Shown here piece by piece: positions 5,589-14,766 of a stretch of 64,000 bases of DNA; positions within the stretch are counted from its first letter, which is position 1; each line of letters starts with the position of its first letter. The stretch spans positions 1 to 64,000 of the forward strand of contig JAJDXK010000033.1 of the NCBI GenBank assembly GCA_022823305.1, read 5' to 3'. Under the pieces are notes generated by a model, which saw only the letters and a list, made by a program, of their open reading frames with translations, had not been told where the DNA came from and ran no database searches. A program made the translations under genes and the position numbers. Source of the DNA: Alphaproteobacteria bacterium (lineage in GTDB: Bacteria > Pseudomonadota > Alphaproteobacteria > UBA828).

Positions 5589-5745
5589 GGGAGGCCACTC
5601 CTCGCTGGCGGCGCGACACTATCGCGCGGCCCGGACGCGGTCCACCCCCGACCGGCGGGACGGCGGCGCCAACCTTACTGGATACCGGCTCCGGGGTAGA
5701 ACGACCCAGTAGCGTACTACAACGGAGTACATTTGATACGTGAGG

Positions 5746-6606
5746 TTAAAACTCGCTAAATGCCTTTAACAACTTCATCGCGGCTGGCATACTTAATTCC
5801 TCACCCGAATATCGGCACTCGTAGAGTCCTTGAAGGTTAGACGGCAGTTCTAAGCCCTCTTCTACGAGGAGTACAAACTTATCTCCATAAAGTGCCATAG
5901 CAGCTCCAATTTCGATTAGCACATTATCGTTTATCTGTGAAACTATATCGCCGTGTTCGCTATACAATACTTTCTCGGCACTTACGTGAATAACCGCAGC
6001 TTTGCAAGTTCTCATATCATCCATTACTTTCTTGGGAACTGGCTTTGCCGCTGTCTCATGCTCCATTGCAACAACGGGCTCCAGTTTTCCATATGAAACG
6101 AGCTCCTTCACTTGACCCAAGATTTTGTGGTTTCTTCCATGAGTGATGAAGACTCTGTTACCCTCTGGTATAGTGACATCCATGCGGTTTGAACTGTCCT
6201 GGGCGTCGGAGCCGTCCGGATAGTCGGCGGAAGCGGGCGCTTCTGACTCTGGTTCTTCAAGCATCGGAACTTCGCTATCGAGCTTTTCGCTTGGCTCGAT
6301 TACGAAGGCCTGTATGGCATCAATGTCGAAATCGAAGCGGGTTGGATTACCCTTCCTTCCTATAGTAAGCGTGCCGAGGTCAGCGCCTTGCGCAACTTGA
6401 AAGAAACATACTGCTTGATCGTTAAGGATTTTGTCTGAATCCGAGACTTCGGACCCGAAGTGCTCGTGCCAATGAGACGCCACCTCCGTTGATGTGATTG
6501 TTTCTTCTCGGAGATGTGCCATCCGTTCTACTATGGCTCGATACGGTCGAACCTTGCCCACCATACCACGTAGTACTGAACTGCGAGAGGAGCCAGTGTC
6601 CTTCAC
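5746..6606 (-). CDS. TIR-like nucleotide-binding domain protein (C-terminal part of an interrupted gene)
   Basis: A 286-codon reading frame beginning at GTG 6606. Residues 15-105 form a helical, DUF5343-like region (PYRAIVERMAH, NDQAVCFFQVAQGADLGTL). Residues 106-148 are an acidic, proline- and serine-rich linker. Residues 150-286 match the TIR-like predicted nucleotide-binding family (PF10137): RVFITHGR, a central ADFAV-like strand (CKAAVIHVSA) and NVLIEIGAAMALYG with the probable catalytic Glu232. Relatives hydrolyse NAD or bind nucleotides in anti-phage systems. It is in the same frame as the 67-codon reading frame at 6613-6816, separated by one TGA and two codons, so the two are probably one gene broken by a nonsense change. 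AT-richer than its neighbours. Function is inferred. Confidence 0.75.
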   Translation of the reverse strand: MKDTGSSRSSVLRGMVGKVRPYRAIVERMAHLREETITSTEVASHWHEHFGSEVSDSDKILNDQAVCFFQVAQGADLGTLTIGRKGNPTRFDFDIDAIQAFVIEPSEKLDSEVPMLEEPESEAPASADYPDGSDAQDSSNRMDVTIPEGNRVFITHGRNHKILGQVKELVSYGKLEPVVAMEHETAAKPVPKKVMDDMRTCKAAVIHVSAEKVLYSEHGDIVSQINDNVLIEIGAAMALYGDKFVLLVEEGLELPSNLQGLYECRYSGEELSMPAAMKLLKAFSEF

Positions 6607-6612
6607 ACACTG

Positions 6613-6816
6613 TCAACCCAACTCCGTAATCTTCAATTTGTCTCCGGCATCCTCAATGAGACCCCAGAATTTCATCGCTGCAAGCTTTCGCCCGTCCAGA
6701 CGTCTCTTATCCAGCACAGCCTTTGCTTCGGCCTGGGTTGCCCCAGTTGGCTTGGTCGCTAGATAGCCGCACACGGCGTCAATATCATCGAGAGTGGTGC
6801 GAATCGGAAGAGTCAC
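6613..6816 (-). CDS. Winged-helix-like N-terminal part of the interrupted TIR-like gene
   Basis: A 67-residue product from GTG 6816, with a good ribosome site (GGAGG seven bases upstream) and a near-consensus promoter upstream. The sequence (DDIDAVCGYLATKPTGAT, DGRKLAAMKFWGLIED, DKLKITELG) looks like a winged-helix domain ending in the strand that normally precedes a T-E-x-G-R turn. The TGA stop at 6613-6615 falls exactly where that Arg (CGA) would be expected, and the frame continues into the TIR-like part. It may act as a separate small protein, as the head of a readthrough product, or as the 5' end of a pseudogene. An in-frame TAG at 6820-6822 rules out an earlier start. Confidence 0.65.
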   Translation of the reverse strand: MTLPIRTTLDDIDAVCGYLATKPTGATQAEAKAVLDKRRLDGRKLAAMKFWGLIEDAGDKLKITELG

Positions 6817-6843
6817 GCCCTAGCCTCCATTGTCGTGCGGCGT

Positions 6844-6872
6844 AATATAAGAGGCTTTGAAATGGGTGTCAA
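6844..6872 (-). promoter_or_regulatory. Near-consensus sigma-70 promoter for the TIR-like gene
   Basis: On the minus strand, TTGACA (6872-6867) is followed by a 17-base spacer and TATATT (6849-6844). The start of transcription would fall near 6837, about 20 bases before the GTG at 6816. This is the best promoter match noticed in the window and it drives the AT-rich insert. The -35 box covers the TGA stop (6869-6871) of the gene transcribed towards it. Confidence 0.75.
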
Positions 6873-7819
6873 CTGCAGAGGTGCAGATCTCTCACTTGCG
6901 TAAGAGTGCCCTTGAGCGCCTCTTCGTGGCCGAGGCCGAGGATCCAGGCCTCCTCCGCCGCGATCAGCCGGCGTTCGCCGGGCGTGAGGCCGGGAGCGCC
7001 TTCGAAGAAGGGCGCGAGCCCGCCGCATGCATCCAGCCGGGCGAAGGCGTCCGCGTTCACGCGCACCTGGGCGCGGTCGAGGATTTCGCCCGCTTGCCTG
7101 CGCACGCGCACCTCGTTCCGCAGCAGCGAGGGATAGACCTCGGCGATCACCGCCTGCGCCTCGGGCGCGCGCAGGCCCGTGTGGAAGGGCCAGACCGCCG
7201 CGCGCCCCTCGATGCGCGGGTCGGCGACGAGTCGCTTGAGCGCGGGCAGGCCGAGCAGCATCTGCGAGCCGACCGAGCCCGCATAGGCGAGCTGCCAGAC
7301 CGTCTTGGCGCCCGTGGCGCGAAGGTCGGCGATGCGGCGCTCCGGCGGGTGGCAGTCCTGCCCTGTGCGCGCCGAGGCCCGCGCCGGGACATCCGGGCAG
7401 CGCCACGTCGGCGGATGGCCCCAGAAGGGGCCGAGGCCCGGATAGGTCCGGTTGATCACCGCGGCGACGGCGTAGCGGTTGTTGGCATTGTCCGGCGCGT
7501 CCTCGATCCGCGCCGCGAGCCAGTCCCGGAGCGCCAGCGCCGACGCCTCGCCGGTCAGGTGCTTCGCCACGCCCGCCGGATAGCCGAAGGGGAAGTCGAA
7601 GCCCGCCAGCACGCGCCGCCCGGCGTCCAGCTCGCCGGCGATGAACGCGGCGAGGCCTTCCAGCGCCTCGTGGCGGGTGCGGGCGTATGCGGGTTCCGGC
7701 ACGCTGCCGCCGTCGCTCCGAGCCACCGCCCACCAGATCGCGTCCCTGCTTTCCCGTTCGGGACTTGGCTTCGACCGCGCCGACCAGTCGACGACGACGT
7801 GGGTATGGAAGAGAGGCAT
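6869..7819 (-). CDS. Conserved alphaproteobacterial protein (often labelled molybdopterin-guanine dinucleotide synthesis)
   Basis: A 316-residue protein starting at ATG 7819. It begins with a strand bearing VVVDWSA, then FDFPFGYPAG, EDAPDNANNRYAVAAVINR, a GPFWG block and VWPFHTG. I recognise the family from alphaproteobacterial genomes, where databases usually call it a molybdopterin-guanine dinucleotide synthesis protein; I know of no experimental basis for that label. The opening VVDWS strand suggests an RNase H/actin-like fold (inference). The last residues (RDLHLCS) run into the promoter of the TIR-like insert, so the C-terminus may have been altered by the insertion. Divergent from the 5'-nucleotidase gene, with 100 bases between starts. 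Confidence 0.7.
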   Translation of the reverse strand: MPLFHTHVVVDWSARSKPSPERESRDAIWWAVARSDGGSVPEPAYARTRHEALEGLAAFIAGELDAGRRVLAGFDFPFGYPAGVAKHLTGEASALALRDWLAARIEDAPDNANNRYAVAAVINRTYPGLGPFWGHPPTWRCPDVPARASARTGQDCHPPERRIADLRATGAKTVWQLAYAGSVGSQMLLGLPALKRLVADPRIEGRAAVWPFHTGLRAPEAQAVIAEVYPSLLRNEVRVRRQAGEILDRAQVRVNADAFARLDACGGLAPFFEGAPGLTPGERRLIAAEEAWILGLGHEEALKGTLTQVRDLHLCS

Positions 7820-11214: not shown

Positions 11215-12525
11215 CTACCCCCGGAAGAGCTTCCGGTCCTTGCGCTTGTGCCAGGCCACCGCGAGCGGCAGGAACCAGGGGCGGCCGGTGTAGAAGGGCT
11301 TGGTTGGGAAGGGCCGCCCGTCGAAGACGGTTCCCGACTCCGGGTCGCCGAGCACCCGGAGCGCGGTCTTGTAGCCCAGATAGGTCCCCATGGGAACGCC
11401 GGAGCCGCACCAGCCCATGGCGTACTCGACGCCGTCGTGGCTGCCGGTGTGCGGCAGCATGTCGAAGGTGAAGGCGGTCTTGCCGGTCCAGCAGTGGCTG
11501 ATCCTCACGCCTTCGAGCTCCGGCACGATGCGCACCATGGCATCGCGCAGGAAGCTCGCCTTGCGCGCGAGCCCGGCGGGCGGCTCGGCGCTGAGCCCGC
11601 CGAAGAGGATCCGCGTGCCGTCCTCGTTGGGCCTGATCCAGCAGGGCGAGTAGCAGTGCTCGACCATGGGCCGCCCGCCCGGCGCGATGCGCTCGATCCG
11701 GTCCTCGGCCAGCGGCTCGGTGGCGATCATGAAGGCGTCCACCGGCACGAGGCGGCGGCGCAGCCATTGGGCTGCCTTCGGCGTGTAGCCGTTGGTGGCG
11801 ACGATGACGTGGCCGGCGCGCACCGTGCCCCGCGCCGTGAAGACGCGGAAGGCTCCGCCCTCGCGCTCGATGGCCTGCACCGGGCAGTGGCCGACGATGC
11901 GGGCGCCGTCGCGGGCGGCGCGCTCCAGCAGCCCGGCGTGGTAGAGGCCGGCGTGGATGACGCCGTTGCCGCGCAGGGTCTGGCCGCCGTGATAGCGGCC
12001 AGCGCGGTAGGCGGGCGGCGCCGCCTCGGGCTCGACCATCTCGGCGTCCACGGGCACGCCGTCGTCCTGCATCATGGCGAGGTCGCGCGCGAGCCCGTCG
12101 AAGACGCGCTTCGACGGTGCGGCGATGAAGCGGCCGGTGTTGCGGTAGAAGCAGGCGATCTGCTCGCGCTCGATCAGCGAGGCCGCGTAGTCGTGCGCGT
12201 CGATCGCCGCGCGGCAGACCCGGGCGGCGCGCTCGCGCCCGAGCTTCGGCACCATATCGCCGTACTTGTACCAGACCTGGCGGCCGAGATAGCCGGCGTT
12301 GCGCGTGCTCGCCCCGTGACCGGCCGCCTCGGCGTCGAGCACCACCACGCCCCTGCCCCGGCGGGCCAGCGTCAGCGCGGCCGAGAGCCCGACGTTGCCG
12401 GCGCCGACGATCGCCACCTCAGCCTCCGCCGGCGGCGCAACGCCCTCATCCTCGGGCCTCGGCGCGAGGTCCCACCAGTAGGGCGTGGCCCGAAAATCGT
12501 CGGTCAGAACATCGCCCGCCGCCAT
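11215..12525 (-). CDS. FAD-dependent oxidoreductase (DAO/PuuB-like)
   Basis: A 436-residue flavoprotein of the D-amino-acid oxidase superfamily. The FAD-binding GAGNVG is at residues 41-46, the HGASTRNAGYLG motif follows, and the C-terminal block MGWCGSGVPMGTYLG is typical of the family. The arrangement (N-terminal PYWWDLAP ahead of the Rossmann motif, HGAS-RN-G motif) resembles gamma-glutamylputrescine oxidase and related amine or amino-acid oxidases, but the substrate is unknown. ATG 12525 was chosen; a GTG at 12543 would add six residues. It lies 33 bases upstream of the YqaA-type gene on the same strand. Confidence 0.82.
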   Translation of the reverse strand: MAAGDVLTDDFRATPYWWDLAPRPEDEGVAPPAEAEVAIVGAGNVGLSAALTLARRGRGVVVLDAEAAGHGASTRNAGYLGRQVWYKYGDMVPKLGRERAARVCRAAIDAHDYAASLIEREQIACFYRNTGRFIAAPSKRVFDGLARDLAMMQDDGVPVDAEMVEPEAAPPAYRAGRYHGGQTLRGNGVIHAGLYHAGLLERAARDGARIVGHCPVQAIEREGGAFRVFTARGTVRAGHVIVATNGYTPKAAQWLRRRLVPVDAFMIATEPLAEDRIERIAPGGRPMVEHCYSPCWIRPNEDGTRILFGGLSAEPPAGLARKASFLRDAMVRIVPELEGVRISHCWTGKTAFTFDMLPHTGSHDGVEYAMGWCGSGVPMGTYLGYKTALRVLGDPESGTVFDGRPFPTKPFYTGRPWFLPLAVAWHKRKDRKLFRG

Positions 12526-12937
12526 CGCCGCCTCCGGCACCAAGTACCGCCCGCGCGCACAGCGCCCGAACCCGCCGGCCCGAGACTACGCTGGATGGCT
12601 GCGCGGGGCTATTGGTTCGAGGTGCGACAAAAGCAAAGTTTCCGCGCCGGCAGCGCTTGCAGGGAGACTGGATAGACGCCTGAACGACAACAACCAACAA
12701 ATTCTGACGACGCCGAGCAACTTTCTCATCTCCGAGAGTCTCGTGCAACCACACCAGCACTGCGGCATTAGCTGCACAAAAAATCCGGGAAAACGCTTCT
12801 CGACAGCTTGCCCCACACAAACAAGGCTGGCACCATCACCTCACAGGGGAACGAGGGACCAGCTCATCAGTCCATTTCGCTTTCAACGAATTGTGGCAGC
12901 TTGGCGACTCACCTCATTGCAACTCTGCACAATTCGA
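12526..12937 (+). other. Non-coding stretch leading into an AT-rich accessory region
   Basis: No convincing gene. Composition shifts from GC-rich to clearly AT-richer near 12610. Reading frames here are short and lack family-like sequence or good ribosome sites. It holds the upstream region of the FAD oxidoreductase and the end of the accessory membrane-protein gene. Confidence 0.5.
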
Positions 12938-13852
12938 TCAATCGTCAAGAGTCGTCAGTATCTCGTCGATCAACTCTTGGCTATCGTCTTGAGGACTGTC
13001 TGTTTCGGAGCTGCTTGATTCGGGGCTTTCTGCCTTGACAGCAAGGGCTCCGGCCTCATATAATTCACACCTTGTTTCGCTTAGCTGTAAAACGGAATAG
13101 TTCTTGTTTTGTTTGCTCCATTCTCCCGCTGCTATAGCGCTCTCCCACTGCTCTTCGTTCTTAAATACTTGATGTTCTACACCATGCATGTCTCGCACCA
13201 GATGATCCTCGACCAGAGCTTCCCACCTGTCGACATACCTGGAGCGTTCTTCTTCGCCAGAATAGTTGTCCTTGAAAAATTCATCACAGTACACCATAGG
13301 CCTGAAAGTAAAGAAAAATTCAAAGAACATCGACCCGAGAAGAAGTGATATCGTACTCTGGTCACATAGGGCCTCGCCATTCAAGCCTTCACTATCCGTC
13401 GACGTATCGACATGCACAGTTTCATAAATGGCTTCAAGATTTCCGCATTTGTATATTAGATTGAATCTTTGCAGAAGACCAACAAGTGAGCGGCGTATAT
13501 TTCTTATCTTGTCAGAGAACAGCGGATGATGAAATACCACTATGGACCTATTCTTAGGCTCCCCCAAATCGCCGTTCGCCCAAATCACATGTTCAATTTC
13601 ATAGTGAATCCTTCTTAGTTCCTTAACCGCATCAGACTCCACAAAGTCCTGGTAAAGCGCTACCGATCGTGCGACGGATGCCCTCAGCTTCTCCTGCTTT
13701 GCGATCTCGGTTTGTAACTGATTTGCTTGACTTCCGAGATTTTGCTGTATGATCAACGCCAGTATAGCAACAGCTACGGTCGCAATGACCGCAGGCTCCG
13801 CCCACCGCCTCGCGTAAGTTTTCGCAGTGGAAAACTGCAACGATGGAGGCAT
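12938..13852 (-). CDS. Unknown membrane-anchored coiled-coil protein (accessory)
   Basis: A 304-residue protein that I do not recognise. Residues 21-36 form one membrane helix. They are followed by a helical, coiled-coil-like segment (QANQLQTEIAKQEKLRASVA), a mixed domain with RSIVVFHHPLFSDKIR and an aromatic patch FFEFFFTFRPMV near residues 195-206, and a Ser/Glu/Asp-rich tail (PESSSSETDSPQDDSQE) ending in TLDD. The layout loosely recalls DUF4760-type proteins. ATG 13852 lies 14 bases after the stop of a small secreted-peptide gene, which suggests coupling; a TTG at 13876 would add eight residues and overlap that gene. The sequence is AT-rich with codon use unlike the neighbours, which points to transfer. 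Confidence 0.65.
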   Translation of the reverse strand: MPPSLQFSTAKTYARRWAEPAVIATVAVAILALIIQQNLGSQANQLQTEIAKQEKLRASVARSVALYQDFVESDAVKELRRIHYEIEHVIWANGDLGEPKNRSIVVFHHPLFSDKIRNIRRSLVGLLQRFNLIYKCGNLEAIYETVHVDTSTDSEGLNGEALCDQSTISLLLGSMFFEFFFTFRPMVYCDEFFKDNYSGEEERSRYVDRWEALVEDHLVRDMHGVEHQVFKNEEQWESAIAAGEWSKQNKNYSVLQLSETRCELYEAGALAVKAESPESSSSETDSPQDDSQELIDEILTTLDD

Positions 13853-13866
13853 CTGGAGGGTAAGCT

Positions 13867-13983
13867 CTACTGGCAAACTGCCGGATTACGGACGCAGGGG
13901 TTCGCATCCGCATTTGTAGCGGCCGAGAATGTGCAAATGCCGAAGATGATCGCCGTGAGGCTAGCAAGCAGAAACATTTTCAT
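13867..13983 (-). CDS. Small secreted Cys-pair peptide (38 residues)
   Basis: A previously unmarked 38-codon gene. The start codon at 13983 is preceded by a strong ribosome site (AGGGGAG, seven bases upstream). Residues 1-27 read as a textbook signal peptide: MKMF, then a hydrophobic LLASLTAIIFGICTF, ending TNADA. The predicted mature tail is about 11 residues with two cysteines spaced CVRNPAVC. The TAG stop is 14 bases before the ATG of the membrane protein downstream, so the two look like one cassette. Function is unknown. The strong ribosome site and clean signal peptide argue that it is real. Confidence 0.65.
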   Translation of the reverse strand: MKMFLLASLTAIIFGICTFSAATNADANPCVRNPAVCQ

Positions 13984-14766
13984 GACTCTTCTCCCCTACT
14001 CGATGTGTTGCCGGGCAATGGCTGCTACCTGCACTGCAGCAGAAGGCGGTTCAGGGGGCCACGAGCGGGCGGCGCGGGTGCTGTGGCCGGGGGCGTCACG
14101 AAGAAGGGGGGCTGGATAGCCTCTTCGATGACGGACCCGGCGCCGCGCCCGCGCCGCCCGCGAGACCTCCCCGGCCGGCACCTCGTGACGGCCGCGCGGG
14201 TGCCTGACCCCGACCGTCTTGCCATGCCTGTTCGGCCTTCCTTCCATACGAGCGAGCATGGGATATAAGAAAAAATAATTCAAATAAAAAATAAAATTAG
14301 ATTATGCAATATTCGGATGGATAAACGGATAATCAAGGCAATTCATATCAGGCTCGGCATCGATGGGATGAGCAATTAACATGGATCAACGGATCTTGAG
14401 GCATAAAGGGCGCGGACCGGTCTCTTGCGGGGCCCCTCGGCGACTGCGCCGGCCGGCACGACGCACCCCCCGGCGGGGCGGTAACGGCGGCTCTCGGGTC
14501 CGGTCCTGCCCTCGATGTCCGGGCGGAGACGCAGCGAGGGCTCCCCGCCGTCGCGGAGAGGCCGCACGCGCATGAGCCCCGCTCGGACCCGGTGAGCCGG
14601 AACGACGGGAACGACGGGACGCTCCCGGCGCGCGCCGCCCGCCGGGCGGCATGGCCGGGCTGCTTGACAGCCCGCCCGCGCGGGTGCCAGCGTCGCCCCG
14701 GGCGGCCGGCCGAAGAAGAGCCATAACCAGGGGCCGGCGCGGGCCACACAAGGGGGGACGGTCGAG
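13984..14766 (+). other. Intergenic stretch with an AT-rich island
   Basis: No supported gene; the frames here are arginine/proline-rich shadows of GC-rich DNA. 14268-14340 is strongly AT-rich inside GC-rich sequence and may hold promoters or a nucleoid-protein site. Two related segments, GGATGGATAAACGGAT near 14315 and CATGGATCAACGGATC near 14381, may be diverged repeats. A TTGACA occurs at 14664-14669 upstream of the DUF2147 gene, without a good -10 box. Confidence 0.45.

What the first reader, a model, noticed from the sequence alone, without database searches (positions are those of the whole stretch)
5746..6816. TIR-like defence-type gene split by one in-frame TGA
The 67-codon winged-helix part and the 286-codon DUF5343-like/TIR part are in the same frame and separated by TGA plus two codons. 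The TGA replaces the expected Arg of an E-x-G-R turn; CGA to TGA is one transition. The promoter and ribosome site are strong and the TIR catalytic Glu is kept, so either the gene was recently inactivated, or the protein is made in two pieces by restart at GTG 6606, or TGA is read through. Splitting a sensor domain from a toxic TIR domain could itself be regulatory.
Basis: partly seen in the sequence, partly recalled or inferred. Interest (0 to 1): 0.68.

Follow-up and report, generated by a model that had tools for sequence, protein, structure and literature searches.

The report
Solo bacterial TIR gene with nonsense codon
A probable virus-defence gene that a bacterium picked up from elsewhere carries one stop codon that its intact relatives do not have, so it is most likely a recently broken copy (or a sequencing error) rather than a new way of building a two-piece protein.

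Summary
On the minus strand, 6816-5746, one frame of 356 codons is interrupted only by TGA at 6615-6613 (codon 68). Eight full-length relatives (56-72% identical) are single uninterrupted genes with Arg at that column. None is encoded as two genes. The protein is a tandem winged-helix N-terminus (weak Pfam match to AAA_assoc_C, not DUF5343) joined by a loose linker to a CAP12/Pycsar-type TIR domain that keeps its conserved Glu. The TGA falls inside the N-terminal module, so the downstream piece keeps one winged helix plus TIR. It is not a clean sensor/toxin split.

The gene lies alone in a ~1.26-kb low-GC insert between two ordinary genes. It was not found in 7 same-genus genomes. Relatives also sit alone at unrelated sites; two other members are damaged too.

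TGA is an ordinary terminator here. I found no tRNA-Sec, no stable hairpin after the TGA, and no good ribosome site at GTG 6606. Apart from the TGA nothing shows decay, so the change looks recent.

Best reading: a horizontally acquired, probable abortive-infection NADase gene inactivated by one recent nonsense change. An assembly error cannot be excluded without reads. Restart, readthrough and regulated splitting have no positive support. Interest is low.

The parts
5649..6908 (.). low-GC insert (about 0.43-0.57 GC in 0.72-0.77 surroundings) that carries the gene
   Evidence: composition; nucleotide similarity to same-genus genomes stops at 5648 on the rph side and resumes at 6909-6913 on the other
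6844..6872 (-). sigma-70-type promoter, TTGACA-17-TATATT
   Evidence: consensus scan, 11 of 12; not tested for function
6824..6829 (-). Shine-Dalgarno-like TGGAGG, 7 nt before the GTG start
5746..6816 (-). whole interrupted gene, 356 codons plus TAA, one internal TGA
   Evidence: translation; eight intact relatives
6601..6816 (-). first winged helix (residues 1-72)
   Evidence: AlphaFold2 model of residues 1-175, mean pLDDT 88.8, pTM 0.86
6613..6615 (-). in-frame TGA at codon 68, an Arg in all eight full-length relatives
   Evidence: codon alignment
6604..6606 (-). GTG, possible restart codon; best ribosome-site match only 4 of 6, 14 nt upstream
6298..6591 (-). second winged helix (about residues 76-173), lies downstream of the TGA
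6166..6294 (-). low-confidence acidic linker, residues 175-217
   Evidence: pLDDT below 50; length varies among relatives
5806..6156 (-). TIR domain, CAP12/Pycsar type (PF10137)
   Evidence: 67.9 bits against a cut-off of 24.7; nearest folds are TIR-STING 7un8 and 9lmq
5911..5913 (-). Glu302 of NVLIEIG, presumed catalytic glutamate
   Evidence: invariant in all 10 aligned members; catalytic role from knowledge of the family

Best explanation
This is a single-gene, horizontally acquired TIR protein that probably worked as a stand-alone abortive-infection NADase: the tandem winged-helix N-terminus senses a phage or nucleic-acid trigger or oligomerises, and this brings the TIR domains together to destroy NAD+ (inferred from family and fold). 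In this genome the copy carries one recent nonsense change at codon 68. Translation from the real start ends inside the N-terminal module, and the TIR piece has no well-placed start of its own, so the gene is most likely silent. Shown here: the TGA, intact relatives, domain layout, solo low-GC insertion, normal use of TGA as stop. Inferred: defence role, NADase activity, loss of function, recency.
For: Eight of eight full-length relatives are uninterrupted with Arg at codon 68, and no relative is arranged as two genes at this point. The window copy has no other stop or frameshift in 356 codons; third codon positions differ about 2-5 times as often as first or second on both sides of the TGA, and there is no significant excess of amino-acid changes against the nearest relative in either half (relative-rate p 0.10 to 1.0). 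Departures from otherwise invariant columns downstream of the TGA are 6 of 116, against 1-3 in L002-L006 and 9 in L007-L009. That suggests a recent change. TGA ends seven of the ten flanking genes checked, and a codon-usage scan of the 64 kb found no other in-frame split: its two candidates are real gene boundaries. The best tRNA-Sec model hits are tRNA-Ser. The gene was not found in 7 same-genus genomes, and of 190 other relatives only two have even a weak TIR-only match. Two other members are damaged (L010 lacks its first 116 residues, L011 is frameshifted), so loss recurs in the family.
Against: No reads or second strain were available, so the stop may not be real or fixed. A small restart or leaky readthrough product cannot be excluded: the base after TGA is C, which from general knowledge of E. 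coli is a weak stop context. Near absence of decay would also be expected if the gene were still selected.
Confidence: 0.66

Rival explanations
1. Sequencing, assembly or consensus artefact, or a minor allele in a mixed population: the real gene is intact.
For: The genome is a draft in 157 contigs, 93.5% complete and 3.4% contaminated. One codon is the whole difference. There is a published precedent in a related CAP12-type TIR gene: D. discoideum tirD was annotated as two genes because of a stop in the reference genome that other genomes lack (PMC13142454).
Against: No other in-frame split in the 64-kb window by codon usage, so the assembly does not look error-prone in this respect; frameshift errors were not tested.
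Confidence: 0.17
2. Translation restarts at GTG 6606 (or ATG 6564), giving a working protein of one winged helix plus TIR.
For: GTG lies 6 nt after the TGA in frame; the downstream half keeps conserved residues. L010 from another genome also has a TIR half without the first 116 residues and with an open frame.
Against: Best ribosome-site match at GTG 6606 is 4 of 6 at spacing 14, against 5 of 6 at spacing 7 for the native start. The first winged helix is conserved in all full-length members, so it is probably needed. The L010 copy may itself be a remnant.
Confidence: 0.11
3. TGA is read through as an amino acid, by suppression or recoding, giving some full-length protein.
For: Frame intact on both sides; TGA followed by C is a leaky context (general knowledge).
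Against: No tRNA-Sec among the best matches; RNA after the TGA folds no better than shuffles (z 0.5 to 1.4); neighbouring genes end in TGA; no full-length relative has a stop there.
Confidence: 0.04
4. The split is an adaptive two-piece arrangement in which the free winged helix regulates the TIR piece.
For: Both pieces are open frames and similarly conserved.
Against: No relative is split this way; the break truncates the last helix of winged helix 1 and leaves winged helix 2 on the TIR piece; no good second ribosome site.
Confidence: 0.02

Closest known systems
CAP12/Pycsar effector TIR domain (Pfam PF10137), e.g. TIR-STING (7un8, 9lmq) and PycTIR (8jsj)
   Same: TIR domain by profile and by predicted fold, conserved glutamate
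   Different: The partner domain is a tandem winged helix rather than STING or a membrane sensor; no cyclase or CD-NTase gene beside it
PDC-S35, a phage-defence candidate in PADLOC-DB
   Same: Same kind of TIR half, matched at 1e-7 to 1e-10
   Different: The match covers only residues ~210-350; the N-terminal part is not matched. No paper naming PDC-S35 was found
SpbK of Bacillus subtilis (PMC12847820)
   Same: Works-like comparison only: a single TIR NADase whose N-terminal domain senses a phage protein and drives TIR clustering
   Different: No direct sequence or structure comparison with SpbK was made; the trigger here is unknown
L002-L009, unnamed winged-helix/TIR genes in Sphingomonas, Methylocystis, Bradyrhizobium and several metagenome-assembled bacteria
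   Same: Same length and domain order, 56-72% identity, mostly solo, GC mostly below the surroundings
   Different: All intact at codon 68

Membership tests
CAP12/Pycsar-type TIR domain (PF10137) | profile score above curated cut-off | tested here: met
   67.9 bits against 24.7; all 10 aligned members match
CAP12/Pycsar-type TIR domain (PF10137) | conserved glutamate and TIR fold | tested here: met
   Glu302 invariant; Foldseek best matches TIR-STING, E 4e-5
CAP12/Pycsar-type TIR domain (PF10137) | NAD+ cleavage | not testable with these tools
   needs an enzyme assay
CBASS effector Cap12 / TIR-STING | STING domain and a CD-NTase gene alongside | tested here: not met
   Cap12 model scores 15.6 bits against 450; neighbours are RNase PH and a MobB-fusion-type unknown protein; no defence model matches the window neighbours tested
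Pycsar effector PycTIR | cyclic-nucleotide sensor part and cyclase gene alongside | tested here: not met
   only the TIR part matches; immediate neighbours are not cyclases
   no match at E up to 1; weak AAA_assoc_C match instead
Programmed stop-codon readthrough / selenoprotein | stop conserved among relatives, decoding tRNA, downstream structure | tested here: not met
   Arg in all eight full-length relatives; no tRNA-Sec found; no stable structure
Stand-alone antiphage TIR protein | protects against phage in a laboratory host | not testable with these tools
   needs phage challenge

The most novel reading that the evidence does not exclude
The TGA makes a natural two-product gene: a free 67-residue winged-helix fragment and a restarted winged-helix/TIR protein, with the dose of the toxic piece set by weak restart or leaky termination, keeping a costly defence gene at a tolerable level.
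Probability: 0.04. Interest if true: 0.55.

Novelty: new member of a known kind. Interest (0 to 1): 0.2.

Why it matters
It documents a small, scattered family of solo winged-helix/TIR genes that appear as single-gene low-GC inserts, and shows that copies are often damaged (3 of the 11 found here). That fits the general view that defence genes are gained and lost quickly. If the split form worked, it would be a simple way of dosing a toxic effector, but nothing here supports that.

Tried and rejected
Searched for the gene in plasmids, phages and viral contigs by protein and by alignment: no relatives. Looked for a clean empty site in same-genus genomes: the interval between rph and the MobB-fusion-type gene is itself variable (about 1.3 kb in the window, 2.3 kb in G007, 5.2 kb in G005, 6.2 kb in G002), so there is no simple empty site. 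Tested for relaxed selection after the stop: a slight excess of changes in the downstream half, not significant. Looked for tRNA-Sec: the top hits are tRNA-Ser. Fold search of the N-terminal module: many weak winged-helix matches, none significant. A profile match of the N-terminus to chains of fused RecA has no single stretch that passes on its own and was set aside as an artefact of repeats. Searches centred on the genera of the relatives failed because locus ids are not accepted as centres. I first took the 6869-7810 neighbour for DUF429 from memory; Pfam did not confirm this, and NCBIfam gives a sub-threshold match to the unknown domain of a MobB fusion protein.

Full report
Observation. 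The minus-strand frame 6816-5746 was read directly. It gives 67 codons from GTG, TGA at 6615-6613, two codons, GTG at 6606, and 286 codons to TAA. The genome search, which reads through stops, sees one 357-codon frame with a single TGA inside. Promoter and ribosome site are good.

Relatives. A scan of about 85,000 species genomes found ten relatives, a lower bound because a single sequence was used as query. Eight are full length (L002-L009) and are single open frames starting at x-x-L-P-I-R-T-T, like the window's V-T-L-P-I-R-T-T. At the column of the TGA all eight have Arg. L010 lacks the first 116 residues with no trace upstream, and L011 is frameshifted in the middle.

Anatomy. Residues 1-175 are predicted with good confidence as two consecutive winged helices (mean pLDDT 88.8, pTM 0.86). 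Pfam sees a weak AAA_assoc_C match in all nine members with this part and none to DUF5343. Fold search gives only weak winged-helix matches. Residues 175-217 are a low-confidence acidic linker. Residues 221-337 are a CAP12/Pycsar TIR domain, closest in fold to TIR-STING. The TGA at codon 68 lies in the last helix of the first winged helix. The downstream piece keeps the second winged helix and the whole TIR domain, so the picture of a sensor cut away from a toxin is only partly right.

Setting. The gene sits in about 1.26 kb of low-GC DNA (5649-6908) in a 72-77% GC neighbourhood, between RNase PH and a gene matching the unknown domain of a MobB fusion protein below cut-off. The gene was not found in seven same-genus genomes, of which two are only 62-67% complete. 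Between the same two flanking genes three of those genomes carry other, longer stretches (G002, G005, G007). The relatives L002-L010 show no shared neighbours by eye except between the two Methylocystis genomes, and the gene's GC is below that of its locus in all but L002. This looks like a solo gene that travels alone (inference).

Is TGA a stop here? Seven of ten flanking genes checked end in TGA. A codon-usage scan of the 64 kb found no other coding frame interrupted by a stop; its two candidates are real boundaries between different genes. The best tRNA-Sec model hits are tRNA-Ser, and the RNA after the TGA folds no better than shuffles. Nothing supports recoding.

Is the gene decayed? Third codon positions differ most on both sides of the TGA. 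The window copy departs from otherwise invariant columns 0 times in 28 before the TGA and 6 in 116 after it, against 1-3 for L002-L006 and 9 for L007-L009 after the same column. Relative-rate tests against L002 are not significant for either half (p 0.10 to 1.0). A long-dead gene is therefore unlikely: the stop is recent, or not real, or the downstream half is still in use.

Mechanism. For intact members I infer a stand-alone abortive-infection NADase: winged-helix module as sensor or oligomeriser, TIR clustering, NAD+ loss. This rests on the family (PF10137), on TIR-STING filaments (PMC9402430, abstract) and on SpbK, a single TIR protein activated through its N-terminal domain (PMC12847820). 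For the window copy the likeliest outcome is no working protein. An artefact is the main rival; the stop once annotated in D. discoideum tirD, a related TIR gene, is absent in other genomes of that species (PMC13142454).

Verdict. Real in the sequence, ordinary in kind: a probable recent nonsense allele of a solo winged-helix/TIR gene. Reads would decide between that and an error.

Noticed in passing
window 12501-14000: A second low-GC island (0.44-0.58 GC) with an intact 312-codon open frame (12938-13876, -) that has no match in Pfam, NCBIfam or PADLOC; it seems to begin with a membrane helix.
   Followed up: partly
window 5589-6868 and L024, L026, L028: The stretch between rph and the MobB-fusion-type gene is a variable site in the genus: TIR gene here (1.3 kb), a dehydrogenase-like gene in G007 (2.3 kb), other genes in G005 (5.2 kb) and G002 (6.2 kb).
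   Followed up: partly
window 6813-6830 (-): A five-codon frame ATG GAG GCT AGG GCG TGA (MEARA) overlaps the GTG start of the TIR gene as GTGA and contains its ribosome site; possibly chance, possibly a coupled leader.
   Followed up: no
L009 5244-5882 and 7082-7720: In Bradyrhizobium the TIR relative has a resolvase-type recombinase gene upstream and, just downstream, a gene with a weak nucleotidyltransferase match (also weak PDC-S09); the other relatives seem to lack these neighbours.
   Followed up: partly
L010 5929-6711: The Rhodomicrobium copy lacks the first 116 residues but keeps an open frame with the whole TIR half; remnant or shortened form.
   Followed up: partly
L011 338-1456: The Terriglobus copy (37% identical) is shifted out of frame in the middle and back in again, with an in-frame TGA in the original frame.
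   Followed up: partly
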